NCBI GenBank assembly: GCA_021202155.1
Contig: JAJQDP010000001.1
Span: forward strand, 1-64,000
Length of the DNA stretch: 64,000 bases
From: Oscillospiraceae bacterium
Lineage (GTDB): Bacteria > Bacillota > Clostridia > Oscillospirales > Ruminococcaceae
Direction of reading: 5' to 3'
The position numbers were made by a program, and so were the translations under genes. Of this stretch, positions 14,496-22,571 are shown one piece after another (position 1 is the stretch's first letter; each line of letters opens with the position of its first letter). The notes beneath the pieces were generated by a model, which was not told where the DNA came from, ran no database searches, and saw only the letters and a program-made list of their open reading frames with translations.

Positions 14496-15148
14496 TGAGA
14501 GAAAATCTTTCAAGACAGCTTGAACTGCTTAATAACGAGCTTATAGAGATGGGCGCACTCTGTGAGGATGCCATCGCATCCGCGGTAAAGTATCTTTCCA
14601 CGGCTGACAGCAAGCTTTTGGAGAACGCCGCAGAGACAGAACGCCAGATTGACCGCCAGGAGCGCGAGATTGAAGACCTCTGCATGAAGCTCATAATCCG
14701 TGAGCAACCGGTTGCAACCGACCTCCGAGTGATCTCCTCAGCTCTCAGGATGACCTCCGACATGGAGCGAATCGGCGACCAGGCATTCGACATTTCCGAT
14801 GTCGCAAAGAATATAGCTCCTCTTAAAGTAGGCGGAGAAATTCAGATTTACGACATGGCGGAAGCAACAGTCAGGATGGTCACCGAAAGCGTCAACTCGT
14901 TCGTAACAAAGGACGTAGCCGCCGCAAAGGCAGTAATTGCCATGGATGATGTCGTCGACGGACTATTTGACGCTGTCAAGAACGAACTTATCGCGGCTAT
15001 CGAGAATAAGAGCGGCAAGGGCGAGCTCTATATCGACATTCTGATGATAGCGAAGTATTTCGAGAGAATCGGCGACCATGCCGTAAATATCGCCGAGTGG
15101 GTAATCTATTCGGTTTCCGGCGAACACAAGCAAAGACCTCAGTCATGA
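14492..15148 (+). CDS. phoU: Phosphate signalling regulator PhoU
   Basis: PhoU couples the Pst transporter to the PhoR sensor and keeps the Pho response off in high phosphate. The 218-aa protein is made of two three-helix repeats, each with the metal-cluster motif: [14 protein letters not shown] near 90 and [13 protein letters not shown] near 192. Length and repeat spacing are typical. It overlaps pstB by 4 bp and is followed by phoPR after 98 bp. Confidence 0.95.
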
Positions 15149-15184
15149 AATTGCGAAGCAATTTCAGCAGATGCGAAGCATCTG
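15147..15184 (+). repeat. Two tandem GAA-loop hairpins after phoU
   Basis: GAAATTGC-GAA-GCAATTTC (15147-15165) and CAGATGC-GAA-GCATCTG (15168-15184) lie back to back. Both have perfect arms and a GAA triloop. No T-tract follows. They belong to a class of triloop palindromes seen in several spacers here (24766, 24859-24952, 39215-39290). Confidence 0.8.
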
Positions 15185-15186
15185 TG

Positions 15187-15215
15187 TTGCAAGGCGGCTT
15201 GAATTGTGGTATAAT
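15187..15215 (+). promoter_or_regulatory. phoPR promoter
   Basis: TTGCAA (15187-15192), 17-bp spacer, consensus TATAAT (15210-15215) with an extended TGG. No TTAACA repeat is seen here, so phoPR may have constitutive expression plus read-through from the pst operon. Confidence 0.8.
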
Positions 15216-15246
15216 AGCCTTGTAAACTGTTTAAGGAGTGATGGTC

Positions 15247-15912
15247 TTGGCAAGAATTTACCTCGTAGAGGATGACGACAACATAAGAAAGCTCATCTGC
15301 TACGCGCTTTCAAAAGAGGGTCACGATATAATCGGATTCCCGACGCCTTCTGAATTCTGGGAGGAATATAGGGCTCAGAAGCCGGAGCTTCTTCTCCTTG
15401 ATATAATGCTCCCCGAGGAGGACGGACTTTCGATTCTTGGGAAGGTAAGAGCCGAATCGGACATTCCTGTTATCATGCTGACAGCCAAGGGCTCGGAGTT
15501 TGACAAGGTCACAGGTCTCGATTTGGGAGCCGACGACTACATCACAAAGCCTTTCGGAATGACCGAGCTTTCTTCAAGAGTCCGGGCAGTTCTCCGAAGG
15601 AGCGGCAAGGCTATAGACAAGACCACCGAATATCACGTCGGAAACATCTATCTTGATTCAGAAAAGCACACCGTCAGAGTGGGTGAAGAGCCGGTTTCGC
15701 TCTCGTTCAAGGAATACAGCATACTTCTTATGCTACTCCAGGCTAATGGTAAGGTTGTCGGCAGGGAGGAGCTTTTATCTCACATCTGGGGCGAATACTA
15801 CGGCGAGTCAAGAACATTGGACGTCCACATAAGGACGCTAAGGCAGAAATTGGGCGAATCGGGTAGCCTGATTCAGACAGTAAAAAAAGTTGGTTATAGG
15901 ATAGGAGAGTAG
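15247..15912 (+). CDS. phoP: PhoP/PhoB-type response regulator
   Basis: An OmpR-family DNA-binding response regulator, about 221 aa. The receiver domain opens with the acidic pair of IYLVEDDDN, has the phosphorylation Asp in LLLLDIMLPEEDG and the switch Lys in KPFGM. A C-terminal winged helix ends LIQTVKKVGYRIGE. Start choice: AAGGAG at 15233-15238 is 8 nt from a TTG at 15247 but only 2 nt from the ATG at 15241, and the TTG start gives MARIYLVEDD, matching homologues. Position beside phoU and phoR indicates control of phosphate starvation genes. Confidence 0.88.
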   Translation: MARIYLVEDDDNIRKLICYALSKEGHDIIGFPTPSEFWEEYRAQKPELLLLDIMLPEEDGLSILGKVRAESDIPVIMLTAKGSEFDKVTGLDLGADDYITKPFGMTELSSRVRAVLRRSGKAIDKTTEYHVGNIYLDSEKHTVRVGEEPVSLSFKEYSILLMLLQANGKVVGREELLSHIWGEYYGESRTLDVHIRTLRQKLGESGSLIQTVKKVGYRIGE

Positions 15913-15914
15913 AA

Positions 15915-17591
15915 ATGAGCACTCTCAGTAAAAAAATATTTCATTCGGAAATAATAGTAGCACTCCTGGTTTTAGTAGCCTGCATCGCGCTCATAATGGG
16001 TGTTCTGTTCGACTATTTTGAAACGAGCCTTGAATCTGAGCTCCAGGAAAAGGCTGAGTATATCGCTTATGTCGTCAACAGAGAGGGAGTAGAGCTCATA
16101 GAGGATTATGGCGACGAGGAGAGTAGAATCAGCATCATCGCCGCTGACGGCACAGTAATTTATGACACCGCCGCCGATGCGGAGTCTTTGGAGAACCACT
16201 CCGACCGCGAAGAGGTAATCGAGGCGATTGCAAACGGCACAGGCTCAAGCACCCGTTATTCGGAAACCCTGACCGAGAAGACGGTCTACTACGCGATTCT
16301 TCTGGATGACGGAAGCATCCTTCGAGTCGCGGCGACGCAGTATACAGTGGTAACAGTTCTTCTGGGACTCGTGAGACCGATTTTGGTAGTACTTGCAATA
16401 GCACTCATATTGTCGCTTCTTCTGTCTTTGAGAGCTTCAAAGTTGATAGTCGATCCGATCAATAACCTCAATCTTGATGCACCTGAAAAGAACGAGACTT
16501 ATGAAGAACTTACACCGCTTCTCAACAAGCTCTCAGCGCAGAGGCGGACGATAGCGGAACAAATAAAAAGCGCGGAAAAACAGCAGTCGGAATTCCGGCT
16601 TATCACAGAAAACATGAGCGAGGGCTTCCTCGTCATCGACAAAGACCTCTGCATCCTGACATACAACAGCGCGGCTCTGAGCCTTCTTGGACTCAGCACG
16701 CCCGTCAGCGGAAGTGTCCTCAGATATAACCGCACAAAGGGGTTGAGAACCGCCATCGAGTCCGCACTTTCTGGTGAAAAGGCGGAGAGCTCGATGGAGG
16801 TATCGGGTCGTTGCTACAGCCTCATCGCAAGCCCGGTGTACGAGGAAAACGCCGTAATAGGCGCGGTAATCATCATCCTTGATGTCACTGAGAGCCAGGA
16901 GCGCGAACAACTCAGACGCGAATTCACTTCAAATGTCTCCCACGAGCTGAAAACGCCTCTCACGTCAATCTCGGGATTTGCGGAAATGCTGATGGCGGGG
17001 GATGTCCCGGCTGAATTGTCGAAAGATTTCTCAAAATCCATCTATGATGAAGCACAGCGACTGATAGCCCTGATTGGCGACATAATCAAGCTCAGTGAGC
17101 TTGACGAGGGCAACGTCGGAGGACTTGACCGCGAGGATGTCGACCTTCTGACCCTTTCCGAAAGCGTCCGCGAGAGACTTTCCTCCGAAGCCGAAAAGAA
17201 GGGTGTCACCCTCACGGTCGAAGGTGAAAGCGCACATGTCAACGGAATCCTCAGAATCTTGGACGAGATGATTTATAACCTCGCCGATAACGCTATCAAG
17301 TATAACCACCAGGGCGGCAAGGCGACCATAAGTGTCACAGATGCCGAGGATAGCGTAATCCTCAGGGTCTCCGACACCGGCTGTGGAATCCCGAGCTCCG
17401 AGACAGACAGAGTTTTCGAGAGATTCTATCGCGTCGACAAGAGCCGTTCAAGCGAAGTCCCCGGTACCGGCTTGGGTCTTTCGATAGTCAAGCACGGAGC
17501 GATATATCACGACGCCAAAATAACCCTCGACAGTAAAGAAAACATCGGCACGACGGTAACCGTCGAGTTCCCGAAAGCAAGCGAGAGCTAA
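15915..17591 (+). CDS. phoR: PhoR-type sensor histidine kinase
   Basis: A membrane sensor kinase, 558 aa, that would phosphorylate the adjacent regulator. Layout: TM1 at about 12-34, an extracellular sensor of about 110 residues, TM2 at about 148-172, a HAMP-like linker, and a PAS-like domain from about 225. The HisKA box FTSNVSHELKTPL and the HATPase motifs NLADNAIKYN, DTGCGIP and GTGLGLSIV follow. It starts 2 bp after phoP behind AGGAGAG. Family knowledge suggests it senses Pst/PhoU state rather than phosphate directly. Confidence 0.9.
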   Translation: MSTLSKKIFHSEIIVALLVLVACIALIMGVLFDYFETSLESELQEKAEYIAYVVNREGVELIEDYGDEESRISIIAADGTVIYDTAADAESLENHSDREEVIEAIANGTGSSTRYSETLTEKTVYYAILLDDGSILRVAATQYTVVTVLLGLVRPILVVLAIALILSLLLSLRASKLIVDPINNLNLDAPEKNETYEELTPLLNKLSAQRRTIAEQIKSAEKQQSEFRLITENMSEGFLVIDKDLCILTYNSAALSLLGLSTPVSGSVLRYNRTKGLRTAIESALSGEKAESSMEVSGRCYSLIASPVYEENAVIGAVIIILDVTESQEREQLRREFTSNVSHELKTPLTSISGFAEMLMAGDVPAELSKDFSKSIYDEAQRLIALIGDIIKLSELDEGNVGGLDREDVDLLTLSESVRERLSSEAEKKGVTLTVEGESAHVNGILRILDEMIYNLADNAIKYNHQGGKATISVTDAEDSVILRVSDTGCGIPSSETDRVFERFYRVDKSRSSEVPGTGLGLSIVKHGAIYHDAKITLDSKENIGTTVTVEFPKASES

Positions 17592-17617
17592 AATGCCTTT
17601 TCATAAGTAGTGTGAGA

Positions 17618-17654
17618 AACGCCCCTGATAGAGATAATCTCCGTCAGGGGCGTT
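17618..17654 (+). other. Strong hairpin after phoR
   Basis: AACGCCCCTGA (17618-17628) pairs perfectly with TCAGGGGCGTT (17644-17654), with a nested GAGAT-A-ATCTC stem in the loop. There is no long T-tract, so it is at best a weak intrinsic terminator; it may be a 3'-end processing structure. Confidence 0.7.
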
Positions 17655-17784
17655 GACCTTTCCGGACTGGCTTAACGCGCAATATTCCAAATAATCTACA
17701 AGATTGTACTTATCTGATTGCAGGATCTGTCTTTATAACACGCTATAAATATGAGGACTAACCCAAAAAATTTCGCAAAACCAC

Positions 17785-17813
17785 TTGAAAAATGCTTCGT
17801 AATATGGCACAAT
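17785..17813 (+). promoter_or_regulatory. Promoter of the kinase/PqqD/S26 unit
   Basis: TTGAAA (17785-17790), 17-bp spacer, CACAAT (17808-17813) with an extended TGG. The leader to the first start codon is about 70 nt and contains the terminator-like hairpin at 17841-17875. Confidence 0.6.
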
Positions 17814-17840
17814 ATAAGTTAGCTTAGTCTGACAGTCTGT

Positions 17841-17875
17841 GTCCTGCGGTCGGATTTGGTCGCAGGACGCTTTTT
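17841..17875 (+). terminator. Terminator-like hairpin inside the leader (possible attenuator)
   Basis: GTCCTGCG (17841-17848) pairs perfectly with CGCAGGAC (17861-17868), followed by GC and five T residues. It lies between the inferred promoter and the first gene, 15 bp before the start codon. It could therefore control read-through, or it could close an unseen short transcript. No small ORF with good initiation signals is visible before it. Confidence 0.65.
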
Positions 17876-17889
17876 GTGGAAGGGTAGTA

Positions 17890-18681
17890 ATGATGGACGT
17901 ATTTAATGTCGAGCTCGCAGGGCTCACAATTGAAGTGAAAAGCCGGTTTGAGTACTTAAGATGGTTCTGCCGGGATTATCTCTCGGAAAGTAAAACTCCC
18001 GATTTCTCGGTCTATGCCGAGGACTCAAAGCTCGAAGAGCTCCGGGAGTACAGCCCCGAGATGCGGGACGAATTTTTGGAGAGGGACGCCGTCTATTCGG
18101 CGATAGCCTCAAAGCTCCCGTATCATGACAGAGTCGCGCTCCACGGCGCGTGCATCTCGTATAAGGGCAAGGGCTATCTCTTCACCGCCGCGAGCGGGAC
18201 GGGAAAGTCGACTCACATCGGTCTCTGGAAGAGGTACTTGGGCGACGACGTCGGAATCGTGAACGGCGACAAGCCTATCTTCCATGTCAAGCCGGACGGC
18301 TCAATCCGTGCCTACGACACCCCATGGTGCGGCAAGGAAGGCTGGAACCGAAAGCATAGTGCCGACATGGCGGGAATCTGCTTTGTCAGAAGACTGGAAG
18401 AGCCGAGCAAGACCAACACCATCCGCCCTGTAGACCCGGAGGAGGCAATCTCGCTCATGCTCCGGCAGATGTTCCACCCATTTGATCCGGAGGCAACCGG
18501 ACTGATGCTCGGGCTGTTCGACGATATAATCACACAGCTTCCGCTCTGGCTCTTGGAGTGCGACATCTCTGAGGAAGCGGTGAAGACGAGCTTTGAAGCC
18601 CTCACCGGCGAGAAATATGTCAGAGCAGAAAAAGAGACAACAATAGAAGAAATAAACAAGCAATGGAGGATGCCAAAATGA
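17890..18681 (+). CDS. HPr-kinase-like / small PEPCK-fold ATPase
   Basis: A 263-aa protein with a C-terminal-HprK-like P-loop fold: LHGACI (84-89), P-loop ASGTGKSTHIGLW (101-113), then VNGDKPIF (124-131) and DTPWCGKEGW (143-152). Databases often label this group ATP-dependent PEP carboxykinase, but it is too short to be one. Related kinases in lasso-peptide clusters phosphorylate a precursor Ser, always beside PqqD-like recognition proteins. Here it overlaps a PqqD-like gene by 4 bp. The open frame extends to 17839, but the ATG at 17890 follows GGAAGGG. The substrate is unknown. Confidence 0.8.
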   Translation: MMDVFNVELAGLTIEVKSRFEYLRWFCRDYLSESKTPDFSVYAEDSKLEELREYSPEMRDEFLERDAVYSAIASKLPYHDRVALHGACISYKGKGYLFTAASGTGKSTHIGLWKRYLGDDVGIVNGDKPIFHVKPDGSIRAYDTPWCGKEGWNRKHSADMAGICFVRRLEEPSKTNTIRPVDPEEAISLMLRQMFHPFDPEATGLMLGLFDDIITQLPLWLLECDISEEAVKTSFEALTGEKYVRAEKETTIEEINKQWRMPK

Positions 18682-18956
18682 AAATCAAGGAAGGCTTTAT
18701 CATAAGAAAGGTTGCGGGAAAGTACGTCGTCGTCGCTACCGGCGAGGCAAGTAAGAGCTTCCACGGAATGGTCAAACTGAACGAGACCGCCAAAATCATC
18801 TGGGAGGGCTTGGCAAACGGCAAGATCCCCGACGAAATCACCGATGAGCTCGCTAAGTTAAATAATGCCGAGACTGAGGAAGACCGCAAGAAAATCTATG
18901 ACGATGTCCAGTCTATGATTAAAGAGATGCAGGACGCCGGATTCTTAGTAGACTGA
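18678..18956 (+). CDS. PqqD-like peptide-recognition protein
   Basis: A 92-aa protein with the PqqD winged-helix pattern: an N-terminal beta hairpin (GFIIRKVAGKYVVVATG), a LNETAKIIWEGL helix where the final Leu/Trp contacts the leader peptide in known members, and a closing DDVQSMIKEMQDAGFLVD helix. Such proteins are RiPP recognition elements that bind precursor leaders for a modifying enzyme. The ATG at 18678 follows GGAGG by 8 nt and overlaps the kinase stop (ATGA), so the two proteins are likely made in equal amounts. No precursor gene is visible nearby. Confidence 0.85.
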   Translation: MKIKEGFIIRKVAGKYVVVATGEASKSFHGMVKLNETAKIIWEGLANGKIPDEITDELAKLNNAETEEDRKKIYDDVQSMIKEMQDAGFLVD

Positions 18957-18966
18957 GCGGCTTGGT

Positions 18967-19425
18967 ATGGAGAACACAACAAGATTAGATGAACTTGAAA
19001 GCTCCGGCTTCATCGTCATCCCGATAAAGGGCGTCAGCATGAATCCGCTTCTCTATAGCTACTCCTCGCATGTTCTTATCGAGAAGCTTGAGGGGCGTCC
19101 CGAGATAAACGACGTGGTGCTCTATGTCCGTGATGACGGGACCCAGGTGCTTCATCGCGTCATGTCTTTTGACGGAGACGTGGCACTCATCCGCGGCGAC
19201 AACACCTATTCTTTGGAGAGAGTGCCGATTTCGGACATAAAGGGCGTTGCAAAGTCGTTCTGGAGAAGCGGCAAGGAGAATTCGCACGAAATTTCGGTGG
19301 ATGACCGGTCGTATAAGCTCTATGTCCGGTTCTGGAATTTCAGCTATCCCATAAGAAAGCTCTGGTTCAGGGCAAAGAACAAGCTCAAGCGGATAGTCAA
19401 GCGTATCATCCGAAAAGAGAATTAA
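18967..19425 (+). CDS. S24/S26 signal-peptidase-like protein
   Basis: A 152-aa protein with S26 boxes: KGVSMNPLL with candidate nucleophile Ser24, DVVLYV, QVLHRVM with His63, and IRGDNTYS with Asp78. The HRV and GDN pattern is that of the SipW/ER-type Ser-His peptidases rather than the Ser-Lys bacterial leader peptidase. No N-terminal membrane anchor is present; the C-terminus is very basic and ends in an amphipathic stretch rich in Arg and Lys. It sits 10 bp after the PqqD-like gene. It may mature or export the target of the kinase/PqqD pair, which is inference. Confidence 0.75.
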   Translation: MENTTRLDELESSGFIVIPIKGVSMNPLLYSYSSHVLIEKLEGRPEINDVVLYVRDDGTQVLHRVMSFDGDVALIRGDNTYSLERVPISDIKGVAKSFWRSGKENSHEISVDDRSYKLYVRFWNFSYPIRKLWFRAKNKLKRIVKRIIRKEN

Positions 19426-19441
19426 GAAGGAATGTGGAAGT

Positions 19442-20395
19442 ATGGAGAGTCATGTAAGAAGAAATATAGTTTTCGCGCTGTTGTCGGTTGCTGTCTTAGC
19501 GGTTTTCATCTTTTTGGTGTACAACTACAGCATTGAAAGCTCCGACGCGAAGAGCCGCCTTGAAGCGGCTGTCGCCGAGGCAAAGGTCTATGAGGATGAG
19601 GTCACCAAGCTCAAGAGGAGCATCACCTCCGCGGCAGACGCCCTCTCAGACACCGCCGGAACTGCACGGTTTGTTATCGGCTATGTAATTTACTCCGAGG
19701 ATGACATATCATTTGCCGAGGAGCAAGGCTTGCAGTATGGATTTGACCCGGCTTTGGTAATAGATTGCGTCGGAAATCTTGTAGAACTTGAGGCTTTGGC
19801 ATCGGTCGCGGCGTCATCCGGTCATGAAATCATGCTCACTGCGTCGGTGTTCACTCCCGAATACAACGAGACGGTCATCTCACTTCTTGACTACATGTCG
19901 GAAGAGGGGATTGAATGCTCCGACATCTTCCTTCTGAGAAGCGATTACTATTCGAGCTCATCTGTAGACCTCGTCATTTCTGACGGCTTCGCTGGGTACA
20001 CCGTCTATAATTCAACCCCGACCTCCGGAATAACCGATGAAGGCTACATCACGTTCGACTATTCCTACCTGACGGTAGACAGTACCTCCTATACAAGATT
20101 CAGCTCGTCCTATACAAACGTGGCATCGATGGTCGTTGCTGTGGATATGGATTCAATTCGCACTGGGACGCTCACAGAGGCTTTTGTCTCAAAGCTTCTC
20201 AGCACCTTGTCATCATATGCAGAGAACGACGACTGCGAGTTTTCGAGTATTTCTGACGTCACCGAGAGCCTTTTGACAGACGCCGAGTCGATGGATGACC
20301 GCATCGCCGAATACGAAGCCTATGCCGCAGAGTGCCAGGCAAGGATTGACGAGCTTGAGGAGATAATAGCCGAAATCTATGCCGGGGTCGATTGA
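19442..20395 (+). CDS. Membrane-anchored coiled-coil protein, unknown function
   Basis: A 317-aa protein not recognised with certainty. One membrane segment at about 10-30 is followed by a heptad-rich coiled coil (about 35-70), a globular middle and a second coiled coil at about 280-313. The middle (about 78-265) has alternating strands and helices with GYVIYSEDD, ALVIDCVGN and GHEIMLTASVF, loosely like a NodB/polysaccharide-deacetylase barrel that lacks the metal-binding His and Asp set. It would face outside the cell. It is the last gene of the kinase/PqqD/S26 unit, 16 bp after the peptidase gene, and ends at a terminator. Confidence 0.7.
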   Translation: MESHVRRNIVFALLSVAVLAVFIFLVYNYSIESSDAKSRLEAAVAEAKVYEDEVTKLKRSITSAADALSDTAGTARFVIGYVIYSEDDISFAEEQGLQYGFDPALVIDCVGNLVELEALASVAASSGHEIMLTASVFTPEYNETVISLLDYMSEEGIECSDIFLLRSDYYSSSSVDLVISDGFAGYTVYNSTPTSGITDEGYITFDYSYLTVDSTSYTRFSSSYTNVASMVVAVDMDSIRTGTLTEAFVSKLLSTLSSYAENDDCEFSSISDVTESLLTDAESMDDRIAEYEAYAAECQARIDELEEIIAEIYAGVD

Positions 20396-20428
20396 TAACC
20401 GGCTCTTAAGAAAATATCACACAAATTC

Positions 20429-20471
20429 AAGCCTTATTTCTCAGATTTCTGGAAATGAGGCTTTGTTTTTT
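20429..20471 (+). terminator. Terminator of the kinase/PqqD/S26 unit
   Basis: AAGCCTTATTTC (20429-20440) pairs with GAAATGAGGCTT (20452-20463), 12 bp with one G-U, followed by TGTTTTTT. Confidence 0.9.
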
Positions 20472-20482
20472 AGAATAATAAG

Positions 20483-20511
20483 TTGATTTTTGTCTGAAAA
20501 AGTGGTATACT
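20483..20511 (+). promoter_or_regulatory. Promoter of the P-type ATPase gene
   Basis: TTGATT (20483-20488), 17-bp spacer, TATACT (20506-20511) with extended TGG. It immediately follows the upstream terminator. No obvious metal-responsive operator palindrome is seen. Confidence 0.75.
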
Positions 20512-20534
20512 CTATAGAAATAAGGGGTGATATT

Positions 20535-22571
20535 ATGGAAACGAAAAAGGTCGTTTCAAATTCCGTCAGGAATCCGGGCAGAGAAAAAAGCTCCGTTTCT
20601 ATAGGCAAAATTGTCGGAGTGGCTGTGCTGACGCTCGCGCTCATGTATCTTGCCGGAGTTAGGGCGTTCGGTCTTCCGATGCCTGGTTTAAGCGAGAACG
20701 TTGCGATTATGACGCTTGTGAGACTCGTGCTTTTTGTCCCGATATTGATTTTAGCAAAAGAGATGTATGTCTTCGGGTGTGAAAGACTTATCCGGTTCAA
20801 CCCGAACATAGAAAGCCTTGCGGTGATTGCAACAGGGCTTGCAGCAGTCACGTCGCTGTACTCTCTTGTTATGGTGGTAATCGGTCGCGAGGATTATGCC
20901 GACAGAATCCACTTTGAAGCCTGCGCCGTAATAATTCTCTTCATGATGGCAAGCAAGTATCTTGAGGAGAAGATGAATAAGTCAAGAGGTTCAACCGCCG
21001 ACAAGCTCAGTGAGCTTTTCCCGGATAGCACGACCGTTGTCAGAAACAATGTTGAGAGCTCAGTCCCCGTCTCGGATATATCCGTCGGAGATTTCGTCCT
21101 GATACAGCCCGGCGAGAGCTTTCCCTGTGACGGTACCGTTGTTTCCGGAAGAGCAGGTGTTGACGAAAGCCTATTTACCGGCGAAGCCTTGCCGGTAGAA
21201 AAGAATGCAGAGGACGCTGTTTTCGCGGGAACTGTCTGCCGGAGCGGCTTCATAACCATCAGGGCTGAAAGCCTTGGGGACGACACCAATCTCGGCAAGA
21301 TGATTTTAGCCGCCAAAAATGCCGAATCGGTGAAGAGCACCGATTCAAAGGTCTACACCCACATGCAGAGAAACGAGAGAGTTTACTCACTTTGCGCAGT
21401 CGGAATTTCAGTTTTGGTCTTCTTCATCTGGCTTATGGCTTCAAAGGATTTTGGACGCTCCCTTGAGGCACTTGAGAGAATGCTTCTCACCGCGTGTCCC
21501 TGCGCTGTGGGGTTTGCGATTCCGTTCGCAGTGAACGCCGCTGTTTCAAGAGGCGAGCGGGAGGGCGTCGTCTACAAGAGCCCATCCGCACTTGAGAAGA
21601 TTGAGTCGATAAACACCGTTGTAATGGACAAGACCGGCGTCATAACCGTCGGAAAGCCGTTTGTCACCGACGTAATCCCGTTTGGGACGGACGCTGTTGA
21701 GGTTGTGCTGATAGCGTCCTCCCTTGAATCACACTCAACCCATCCGATAGCTTCTGCGGTTCTGGATTATGCCAGGAAAAACGACATTGAGCCGATGGAC
21801 TGTGACGTTTTCGAGTCGGTCGAGGGCTTTGGAGTCAAGGGCGTCATCGATGAGGACAGCGTTTCTGTCGGAAGAGCCGATGCCATCTTCACAGGCGATT
21901 TTGAGGGCTACGCCACCGTCTGCCAGCCGCTTACTGAACAGGGCAAAACGATAGCCGCTGTCACCAAAAACGGCTCGCCGATTGGAGTCATCGCTTTCCA
22001 GGACAAACTTAAGCCGACAAGTAAAGCAGGAGTCGAACGCCTTGCAAAGCTTGGCATAAGAACAATAATGGTGACCGGCGACAGCCAGGGAACGGGAAAA
22101 TCGGTTGCTGAGGAAATCGGAGTTTATGACCACGCCGAGAATGTCACCCCCTCCCAGAAGGCTGAGATGATTCGCAAGCTCCGTTATGGCGGAAGAACCG
22201 TTGCGATGATAGGGGACAGCTCGAACGATGCTCTTGCCCTTGCCGCCGCAGACGTCGCAATTTCGATGAAGGACGGCTCCGATGTCGCTCTTGAAGCCTC
22301 GGATATAGTTCTTTTGAAGAACGACCTCCGCGATGCCTCAATCGCCGTGAGAATTTCGTCGGAGACCAAAAAGACCATCTCCTCGAACTTCCTCTTCGGA
22401 ATGGTCTTCAATGCAGTAACCGTCCCGATAATGGCTTTCTCGCCGCTCTTCATCCAGAACCCGACCATCGACGCCTTCATCTGCACCGTCTGCCTCGCCG
22501 TCTCCACCGTCGCCGTCCTCTTCAATAGCGTCCGCATAAAAAAGATGGACCTGACCGCGACAAAGGATTGA
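20535..22571 (+). CDS. Atypical P1B-type (heavy-metal) ATPase
   Basis: A 678-aa P-type ATPase of the metal-exporting P1B group. It has TGEA (215-218), the intramembrane CPC metal site (321-323), the phosphorylated Asp365 in MDKTG, the P1B-specific SxxxHP motif (SHSTHP) and TGDSQGTGKSVA. Oddities: the usual DKTGTLT reads DKTGVIT, GDGINDAPAL reads GDSSNDALAL, the N-terminal metal-binding HMA domain is absent, and the copper-type YN/MxxSS signatures of the last membrane helices are degenerate (FN, no MxxSS). The metal may therefore not be copper. The ATG at 20535 follows AAGGGGTG. Confidence 0.85.
   Translation: METKKVVSNSVRNPGREKSSVSIGKIVGVAVLTLALMYLAGVRAFGLPMPGLSENVAIMTLVRLVLFVPILILAKEMYVFGCERLIRFNPNIESLAVIATGLAAVTSLYSLVMVVIGREDYADRIHFEACAVIILFMMASKYLEEKMNKSRGSTADKLSELFPDSTTVVRNNVESSVPVSDISVGDFVLIQPGESFPCDGTVVSGRAGVDESLFTGEALPVEKNAEDAVFAGTVCRSGFITIRAESLGDDTNLGKMILAAKNAESVKSTDSKVYTHMQRNERVYSLCAVGISVLVFFIWLMASKDFGRSLEALERMLLTACPCAVGFAIPFAVNAAVSRGEREGVVYKSPSALEKIESINTVVMDKTGVITVGKPFVTDVIPFGTDAVEVVLIASSLESHSTHPIASAVLDYARKNDIEPMDCDVFESVEGFGVKGVIDEDSVSVGRADAIFTGDFEGYATVCQPLTEQGKTIAAVTKNGSPIGVIAFQDKLKPTSKAGVERLAKLGIRTIMVTGDSQGTGKSVAEEIGVYDHAENVTPSQKAEMIRKLRYGGRTVAMIGDSSNDALALAAADVAISMKDGSDVALEASDIVLLKNDLRDASIAVRISSETKKTISSNFLFGMVFNAVTVPIMAFSPLFIQNPTIDAFICTVCLAVSTVAVLFNSVRIKKMDLTATKD

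What the first reader, a model, noticed from the sequence alone, without database searches (positions are those of the whole stretch)
17785..20471. Compact HPrK-kinase/PqqD/S26/coiled-coil unit without a precursor
Seen: four genes with 4-16 bp spacing, one promoter, a leader hairpin and a terminator. Known: HPrK-like kinases beside PqqD-like recognition proteins modify lasso-peptide precursors. Here no lasso cyclase, transporter or precursor is seen, and a Ser-His S26-like peptidase without an anchor plus an extracellular coiled-coil protein take their place. Inference: an uncharacterised peptide- or protein-phosphorylation and processing system, perhaps acting on the coiled-coil protein or on an encoded-elsewhere peptide.
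Basis: partly seen in the sequence, partly recalled or inferred. Interest (0 to 1): 0.75.

Follow-up and report, generated by a model that had tools for sequence, protein, structure and literature searches.

The report
Shared maturation unit for scattered peptides
A four-gene bacterial unit resembling part of the machinery for lasso peptides lacks a neighbouring substrate, but the same genome carries dozens of short matching precursor-like peptides in distant places, which suggests one shared workshop for a large, undescribed peptide repertoire.

Summary
The four genes are real: K (HPrK-like P-loop kinase), D (PqqD-type recognition protein), P (soluble Ser-His S26/S24-fold peptidase), C (coiled-coil protein with a membrane helix). 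They recur together before the same P-type ATPase gene in 7 of 31 congeneric genomes; four sister genomes lack them at that place. D's closest solved relatives are lasso B1 proteins. C folds like a NodB/CE4 deacetylase without its catalytic residues and is an unlikely substrate. Relatives form K-D-P-[ABC exporter]-nucleotidyltransferase cassettes, several with a small ORF upstream of K bearing a lasso-like leader (Y-x-x-P/H-x-M); one fuses P to the exporter. No such ORF was found on the window's contig, but the host genome has about 26 hits, scattered and in tandem arrays. The 7 genomes with K-D-P-C have 2-31 hits each (108 in all), the other 24 have 0-1. I propose a trans-acting RiPP-like hub: D recruits many unlinked precursors, K phosphorylates their Ser/Thr-rich tails, P removes leaders. 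All chemistry, export and C's role are inferred. It is not a lasso cluster: no B2 above cut-off in 31 genomes, no cyclase among 11 neighbours scanned.

The parts
17785..17813 (+). promoter TTGAAA-N17-CACAAT with TG before the second hexamer
   Evidence: scan (9 of 12); hexamers invariant in six readable orthologous leaders
17839..17870 (+). leader hairpin followed by a T-run, just before the K ribosome-binding site; attenuator-like
   Evidence: z -3.2; kept in six orthologues, with changed stem sequence in L094 (by eye)
17893..18681 (+). K: HPrK/PEPCK-like P-loop kinase, 262 aa (ATG 17890 also possible)
   Evidence: Walker A ASGTGKST; invariant H84, G102, K105, N124, D126, K127, P128 in the 20-row alignment; weak NCBIfam ScmC and HprK_rel_A; weak PEPCK/HPrK in PDB
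18678..18956 (+). D: PqqD-family RiPP recognition protein, 92 aa
   Evidence: PF05402 6.1e-11, 42.9 bits over cut-off 23.4; PDB profile TbiB1 2.9e-9, TfuB1 1.9e-8; only PF05402 match in the genome at E <= 0.1
18967..19425 (+). P: soluble Ser-His S26/S24-fold peptidase, 152 aa
   Evidence: TIGR02227 1.2e-5, below its cut-off; invariant GxSMxP, LHR, GD; AF2 pLDDT 93.5; Foldseek best SipA 5.3e-4, then SPase I and LexA/UmuD
19442..20395 (+). C: N-terminal membrane helix, coiled-coil stalk and NodB/CE4-fold domain without the catalytic residues, 317 aa
20430..20471 (+). terminator-like inverted repeat and T-run between C and the P-type ATPase gene
   Evidence: read by eye, not listed by the scan; conserved in 7 of 7 orthologous loci

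Best explanation
K-D-P-C is a trans-acting maturation hub for a family of short RiPP-like precursor peptides scattered over the genome. Each precursor has a conserved N-terminal leader (Y-x-x-H/P/Y-E-M-x-V/I-V/I-x-F...D-V-F) and a variable, acidic, Ser/Thr/Gly-rich tail. D binds the leader as lasso B1 does and delivers the peptide to K, which phosphorylates tail Ser/Thr, and to P, a cytoplasmic Ser-His S26-fold peptidase that cuts off the leader in place of the lasso B2 protease. Export would use an exporter encoded elsewhere. C displays a catalytically dead deacetylase-fold domain on the cell surface and may bind the mature peptides or cell-wall glycans (receptor, immunity or tether). Shown: genes, shared gene order, absence of the unit at the same place in sister genomes, predicted folds, a precursor-like ORF family and its co-occurrence with the unit. 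Inferred: all chemistry, the order of steps, export and C's role.
For: (1) K-D-P-C in the same order with the P-type ATPase next downstream in 7 of 31 congeneric genomes; the phoR-type kinase is upstream in 6 of 6 readable loci, directly in 3 and behind a block of about five genes in 3. (2) A model of 25 peptides (A3) has 26, 26, 31, 9, 8, 6 and 2 hits at E <= 0.05 in those 7 genomes, 1 in each of 5 others and 0 in 19; at least 2 hits: 7 of 7 versus 0 of 24, Fisher 3.8e-7. (3) Among 11 genomes with the flanking ATPase at 79% identity or more, the 4 without the unit between histidine kinase and ATPase have 1 hit each; exact rank test 0.003. (4) In 197 family genomes (same handles in both searches), peptide hits in 13 of 27 with a D homologue versus 4 of 170 without; leaving out the own genome 12 of 26 versus 4 of 170, p 2.8e-9. 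(5) In other K loci such ORFs lie mostly just before K: 11 of 14 hits at E <= 0.06 precede or overlap its start within 1.9 kb; shuffled ORFs gave nothing below E 9 (partly circular, see against). (6) RBS-like site before 58 of 70 peptides versus 1182 of 5751 ATGs; Ser or Thr in 70 of 70 tails. (7) D closest to lasso B1 structures; P next to an ABC exporter in sister cassettes and fused to one in L124. (8) In print: a B1 protein strongly enhances an HPrK-like lasso kinase acting on its precursor, in a cluster A-B1-B2-C-D-K-N (PMC10368454, passages and section 25 read); a nucleotidyltransferase adds hexoses to the phosphorylated lasso peptide pseudomycoidin (PMC8498205, passages).
Against: No precursor lies at the locus, so the link is by co-occurrence. 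The 7 genomes are close relatives and share descent. 20 of 25 rows of A3 come from the own genome, which favours near relatives; not every hit was inspected as an ORF. The K-adjacency test is partly circular: own-genome peptides were found with a model (A2) that already held most of these ORFs; of the 14 hits, 4 were not in A2 (3 of these precede or overlap K's start). Of the 7 hits from other genera, 4 do and 3 do not. PqqD matches occur in 16 of 31 genus genomes; the 9 without the unit have 0-1 peptide hits, so D alone does not predict them. Four family genomes have peptide hits and no D found; 14 of 27 with D have no hit. G302, G307 and G308 keep a D-P pair (D interrupted in G308) yet have 1 hit each. 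Position 4 of the motif is H in 36 of 70 and P in only 7, unlike lasso YxxPxL. In BsfA, Ala at Y and L, and double and triple changes including P, did not stop phosphorylation. K's link to kinases by sequence is weak. The own genome has a second K (C51) beside its own peptide, so the focal K need not be the only kinase.
Confidence: 0.62

Rival explanations
1. K-D-P-C acts on one or a few dedicated substrates (a single unlinked peptide or a protein); the many Y-x-x-H/P peptides have their own partners, such as the second kinase beside a peptide on contig C51.
For: A second K (G000:C51) has a peptide directly upstream and no D labelled nearby. In other genera cassettes have one or two nearby peptides (L033, L045).
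Against: One PqqD match in the genome against about 26 peptide hits with the shared leader type; hits fall to one where the unit is missing at its place.
Confidence: 0.2
2. A surface-glycan unit: K, D and P modify a carrier or envelope protein, and C with its deacetylase fold takes part in cell-wall or polysaccharide handling; the peptides are unrelated.
For: C has a NodB/CE4 fold. Related K-D-P cassettes include PF14907 nucleotidyltransferases, and the two own-genome PF14907 genes lie near sugar-transferase or TupA-like genes.
Against: C lacks conserved CE4 catalytic residues; a nucleotidyltransferase of a lasso cluster modifies a phosphopeptide; the peptide association.
Confidence: 0.1
3. 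C is the substrate: the kinase/PqqD/peptidase set modifies the coiled-coil protein.
For: C shares its locus with K and D in 10 of 10 distinct C loci examined (7 genus loci, L103, L123, L124; within about 5 kb).
Against: The C domain is inferred to be outside the cell; no Y-x-x-P/H-x-M leader at its N terminus; many K-D-P cassettes lack C.
Confidence: 0.05
4. A decayed lasso cluster that lost precursor, cyclase and B2 and no longer functions.
For: Lasso-like D and K without B2 above cut-off in the genus or a cyclase among the neighbours scanned.
Against: The four ORFs and their signals are conserved across 7 species (K 70-90% identical, C 64-73%).
Confidence: 0.03

Closest known systems
Phosphorylated lasso peptide clusters (paeninodin, pseudomycoidin, bsf of Bradymonas sediminis)
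   Same: PqqD-type B1, HPrK-like kinase, and in sister cassettes an ABC exporter and nucleotidyltransferase; small precursors with Tyr-x-x-Pro-like leaders.
   Different: No cyclase among the neighbours scanned and no lasso B2 above cut-off in the genus; an S26/S24-fold peptidase instead; precursors unlinked and many; mostly His instead of Pro in the motif; extra protein C.
Prochlorosin system (ProcM with many dispersed ProcA precursors) - recalled, not looked up
   Same: One maturation set serving many unlinked precursors with a conserved leader and variable core.
   Different: ProcM is a lanthipeptide synthetase; here a kinase, a recognition protein and a peptidase.
Peptidase-containing ABC transporters (C39 PCAT; named in PMC10885120, passages)
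   Same: L124 fuses P to an ABC exporter, the same logic of leader removal coupled to export.
   Different: Serine S26/S24-fold peptidase instead of a C39 cysteine peptidase; in the window P stands alone.
SynChlorMet cassette protein ScmC / HprK-related kinase A (NCBIfam)
   Same: Best NCBIfam matches of K.
   Different: 18 and 14 bits against cut-offs of 125 and 200.

Membership tests
Lasso peptide biosynthetic cluster | PqqD-type B1 recognition protein | tested here: met
   PF05402 over cut-off; TbiB1 and TfuB1 best in PDB
Lasso peptide biosynthetic cluster | B2 transglutaminase-like leader peptidase (PF13471) | tested here: not met
   0 of 31 genus genomes over the cut-off; 17 of 31, the own genome included, have sub-threshold matches at E <= 0.01
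Lasso peptide biosynthetic cluster | Asn-synthetase-like cyclase at the locus | tested here: not met
   none among the 11 window proteins scanned with Pfam between 11.8 and 24.7 kb; the rest of the genome was not searched
Lasso peptide biosynthetic cluster | precursor with YxxPxL leader, Thr at -2 and ring-forming Gly1...Asp/Glu | tested here: inconclusive
   leader resembles YxxPxL but position 4 is mostly His (36 of 70); core pattern not tested
PqqD family (PF05402) | profile match over the gathering score | tested here: met
   42.9 bits versus 23.4
HPr kinase/phosphorylase (TIGR00679) | profile match over the cut-off | tested here: not met
   11.3 bits versus 240
P-loop kinases of the HPrK/PEPCK type | Walker A motif with the HPrK/PEPCK surroundings | tested here: inconclusive
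   Walker A and NxDKP residues invariant in the 20-row alignment, but sequence matches to HPrK/PEPCK are weak (E 0.2-0.8 in PDB) and no structure of K was predicted
S26/S24 peptidases | Ser in GxSMxP plus a conserved general base and GD box in an S26/S24 fold | tested here: met
   invariant in 19 of 19; fold; sequence profile below its curated cut-off
CE4/NodB deacetylases | NodB-type barrel fold | tested here: met
CE4/NodB deacetylases | catalytic Asp and metal-binding His-x3-His (motifs recalled) | tested here: not met
   no invariant His among 10 sequences; no Pfam deacetylase match at E <= 1; residues were not mapped by superposition
RiPP system | leader-dependent modification of a ribosomal precursor | not testable with these tools
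   needs biochemistry

The most novel reading that the evidence does not exclude
A cyclase-free class of phosphorylated RiPPs in which one recognition protein, one kinase and one S26-fold leader peptidase serve dozens of unlinked, rapidly diversifying precursors per genome, some in tandem arrays of up to about 19 ORFs, with a surface pseudo-deacetylase reading or guarding against the products.
Probability: 0.45. Interest if true: 0.88.

Novelty: new variant of a known kind. Interest (0 to 1): 0.77.

Why it matters
If true, cluster-based mining misses this repertoire because precursors and enzymes are apart; 108 precursor-like hits occur in seven genomes alone. It would add an S26/S24-fold leader peptidase to RiPP biology (the terms S26, S24 and signal peptidase do not occur in the main text of the protease review PMC10885120, term search), show kinase-based RiPP maturation without lasso folding, and give a compact, directly testable D-K-P system with many natural substrates.

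Tried and rejected
Hits to C in three other family genomes at E about 4e-4 (L065-L067) were judged chance from the ORFs seen there. A further weak genus hit to C (G303:C20, 7.6e-5, 62 residues) was not examined. Rfam on 15000-22000 gave one irrelevant match at E 0.65. NCBIfam gave no relevant family for ten precursor-like peptides (one match at 0.15). A sigma-54 reading of the promoter was dropped by eye because the spacing is wrong. The PDB profile search with C gave only weak matches, mostly coiled coils (best E 0.27); structure prediction was needed. RRE-Finder (PMC7470986) has no occurrence of kinase, S26, S24, nucleotidyltransferase or signal peptidase in its main text (term search only). 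Ten literature searches (PubMed Central under CC0, CC BY and CC BY-SA, capped lists) listed no paper that I recognised as describing K-D-S26 systems or such arrays; only listings and the passages cited were seen, so this is no proof of absence. Not tested: a lasso cyclase elsewhere in the genome, the exporter of the peptides, a K structure, a D-K or D-leader complex, D groove residues.
Full report
What is there. Four + strand genes lie between the histidine kinase of a pst-phoU-phoBR block and a P-type ATPase gene. K (17893-18681) has a Walker A motif and resembles the HPrK/PEPCK kind, far below the cut-offs of the named families it matches. D (18678-18956) is a PqqD-family protein. P (18967-19425) has the Ser-His motifs of S26 enzymes without an anchor. 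C (19442-20395) has an N-terminal membrane helix and coiled-coil segments. K and D overlap by 4 nt; the other gaps are 10 and 16 nt.

Conservation. Among 31 genomes of the genus, the four genes recur in the same order before the same P-type ATPase gene in 7. The histidine kinase is upstream in the 6 loci that can be read that far, directly in 3 and behind a block of about five genes in 3. Promoter and leader hairpin are conserved in the 6 readable leaders, the terminator-like repeat in 7 of 7. The ATPase orthologue (at least 79% identity) is found in 11 genomes; in the 4 without the unit (G271, G302, G307, G308) the histidine kinase and ATPase genes are neighbours with no K, D, P or C between them. 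G302, G307 and G308 keep a D-P pair elsewhere, with D interrupted in G308; G271, G302 and G307 have a K elsewhere, short in G271 and split in G302, and in G307 it adjoins a gene with weak DUF5696/GH101-like matches.

The wider family. With the window's D as query, homologues were found in 27 of 197 family genomes, the own one included. Of 30 loci from the other 26 genomes, 18 have K, 15 P, 9 an ABC exporter, 9 a PF14907-like nucleotidyltransferase and 5 a radical SAM gene on the same strand within 5 kb of D, by similarity to my seed proteins; D was labelled in 27 of the 30. C was found in 10 distinct loci, each with K and D: the 7 orthologues, a second locus in G306 (L103/L125) with a 60-residue peptide and a radical SAM gene instead of P, and two named MAG loci, L123 (P split over two ORFs) and L124 (P fused to an ABC exporter in one 802-residue ORF). 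One more weak C hit was not examined. The named MAGs are labelled Oscillospiraceae, Ruminococcus sp., Clostridia and Lachnospiraceae.

The missing precursor. Scans of short ORFs in these loci that ignored position (a regular expression, a four-peptide model) found peptides of about 40-60 residues with a leader like Y-x-x-P-x-M-x-V-I-x-F...D-V-I and variable tails, many just upstream of K (L033, L045, L099, L098, L101, L102, L103 and, in the own genome, contig C51). The leader resembles the lasso YxxPxL motif (PMC6784204 and PMC10368454, passages). A model of 12 (A2) gave 19 hits up to E 10 in the own genome; a model of 25 (A3, 20 rows from the own genome) gave 26 at E <= 0.05. At least seven are contiguous in 1.1 kb on C42 and four on C12; G306 has 19 ORFs in 2.9 kb (L184) and G304 15-16 in 2.5 kb (L185). 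None is on the window's contig.

Do the peptides belong to the unit? Genus hits: 26, 26, 31, 9, 8, 6 and 2 in the 7 genomes with K-D-P-C; 1 in each of G302, G271, G307, G308, G321; 0 in 19. PqqD matches alone occur in 16 of 31 genomes, and the 9 without the unit have 0-1 peptide hits. At family level 13 of 27 genomes with D have hits against 4 of 170 without. A model from 19 own-genome peptides not next to K gave 14 hits at E <= 0.06 among 5923 short ORFs of 41 loci (32 with K); 11 are on K's strand and precede or overlap its start within 1.9 kb; shuffled ORFs gave none below E 9. This test is partly circular (10 of the 14 were already in A2; of the 4 new ones 3 precede or overlap K's start), and of the 7 hits in other genera 4 do so. 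Of 70 peptides from 21 loci, 58 have an RBS-like site against 1182 of 5751 ATGs; position 1 is Tyr in 60, position 4 His in 36, Tyr in 14, Pro in 7; position 11 Phe in 54 (my anchor misplaces a few); each tail has Ser or Thr (4.8 on average) and tails are acidic.

How it would work. In a characterised lasso cluster a B1 protein greatly enhances an HPrK-like kinase acting on the precursor, although Ala at the YxxPxL positions did not stop it (PMC10368454); in pseudomycoidin the nucleotidyltransferase adds hexoses to the phosphorylated peptide (PMC8498205). By analogy D recruits the leader, K phosphorylates tail Ser/Thr and P removes the leader; the P::ABC fusion in L124 supports P as a leader peptidase coupled to export in relatives. 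In the own genome the exporter is unknown; a MacA-like adaptor (by eye) and an FtsX-like permease lie directly upstream of the C12 array. C is inferred to be outside and so is no ready substrate of cytoplasmic K, D and P; receptor, immunity or tether are guesses.

Membership. It is not filed as a lasso cluster: no B2 above cut-off in 31 genomes and no cyclase among the 11 neighbours scanned. It works like the recognition and tailoring half of one. I class it as a new variant of a known kind (RiPP-like), with a trans-acting, many-precursor layout like prochlorosins (recalled).

Noticed in passing
G000:C12 (L147:1151-5074): MacA-like adaptor (by eye) and FtsX-like permease (Pfam) directly upstream of a four-peptide array: candidate exporter. 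FtsX-like genes, judged by eye, also lie near single peptides in L189 and L191.
   Followed up: partly
G000:C51 (L100:9547-10647): Second K (30% identical) with a peptide directly upstream and an 85-residue SANT-like protein (by eye) downstream; no D or P labelled nearby.
   Followed up: partly
L145, L148, L149, L150, L151: Recurrent modules in the own genome: a large, probably secreted protein, then a Y-x-x-H-like peptide, often with a Thr-rich small lipoprotein-like protein and a SANT-like 81-89-residue protein (by eye).
   Followed up: partly
window 17839-17870: Terminator-like hairpin conserved between promoter and first gene; looks like attenuation control of the unit.
   Followed up: partly
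L124:3498-5533: A 457-residue ATPase-like gene and a 221-residue gene inserted between D and the P::ABC fusion, resembling a defence pair (by eye).
   Followed up: no
L189, L191, L193, L194, L195: Single peptides next to a 162-183-residue protein that looks by eye like the Spo0A C-terminal domain; in G308, G307 and G302 this is the only peptide hit at E <= 0.05.
   Followed up: no
L184:4394-9474: Several serine-recombinase-like genes directly upstream of the 19-ORF array in G306 (by eye), perhaps linked to array turnover.
   Followed up: no
L095-L097: K homologues (63-65%) without D nearby in three of the four genomes lacking the unit; in L095 beside a gene with weak GH101/DUF5696-like matches.
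   Followed up: partly
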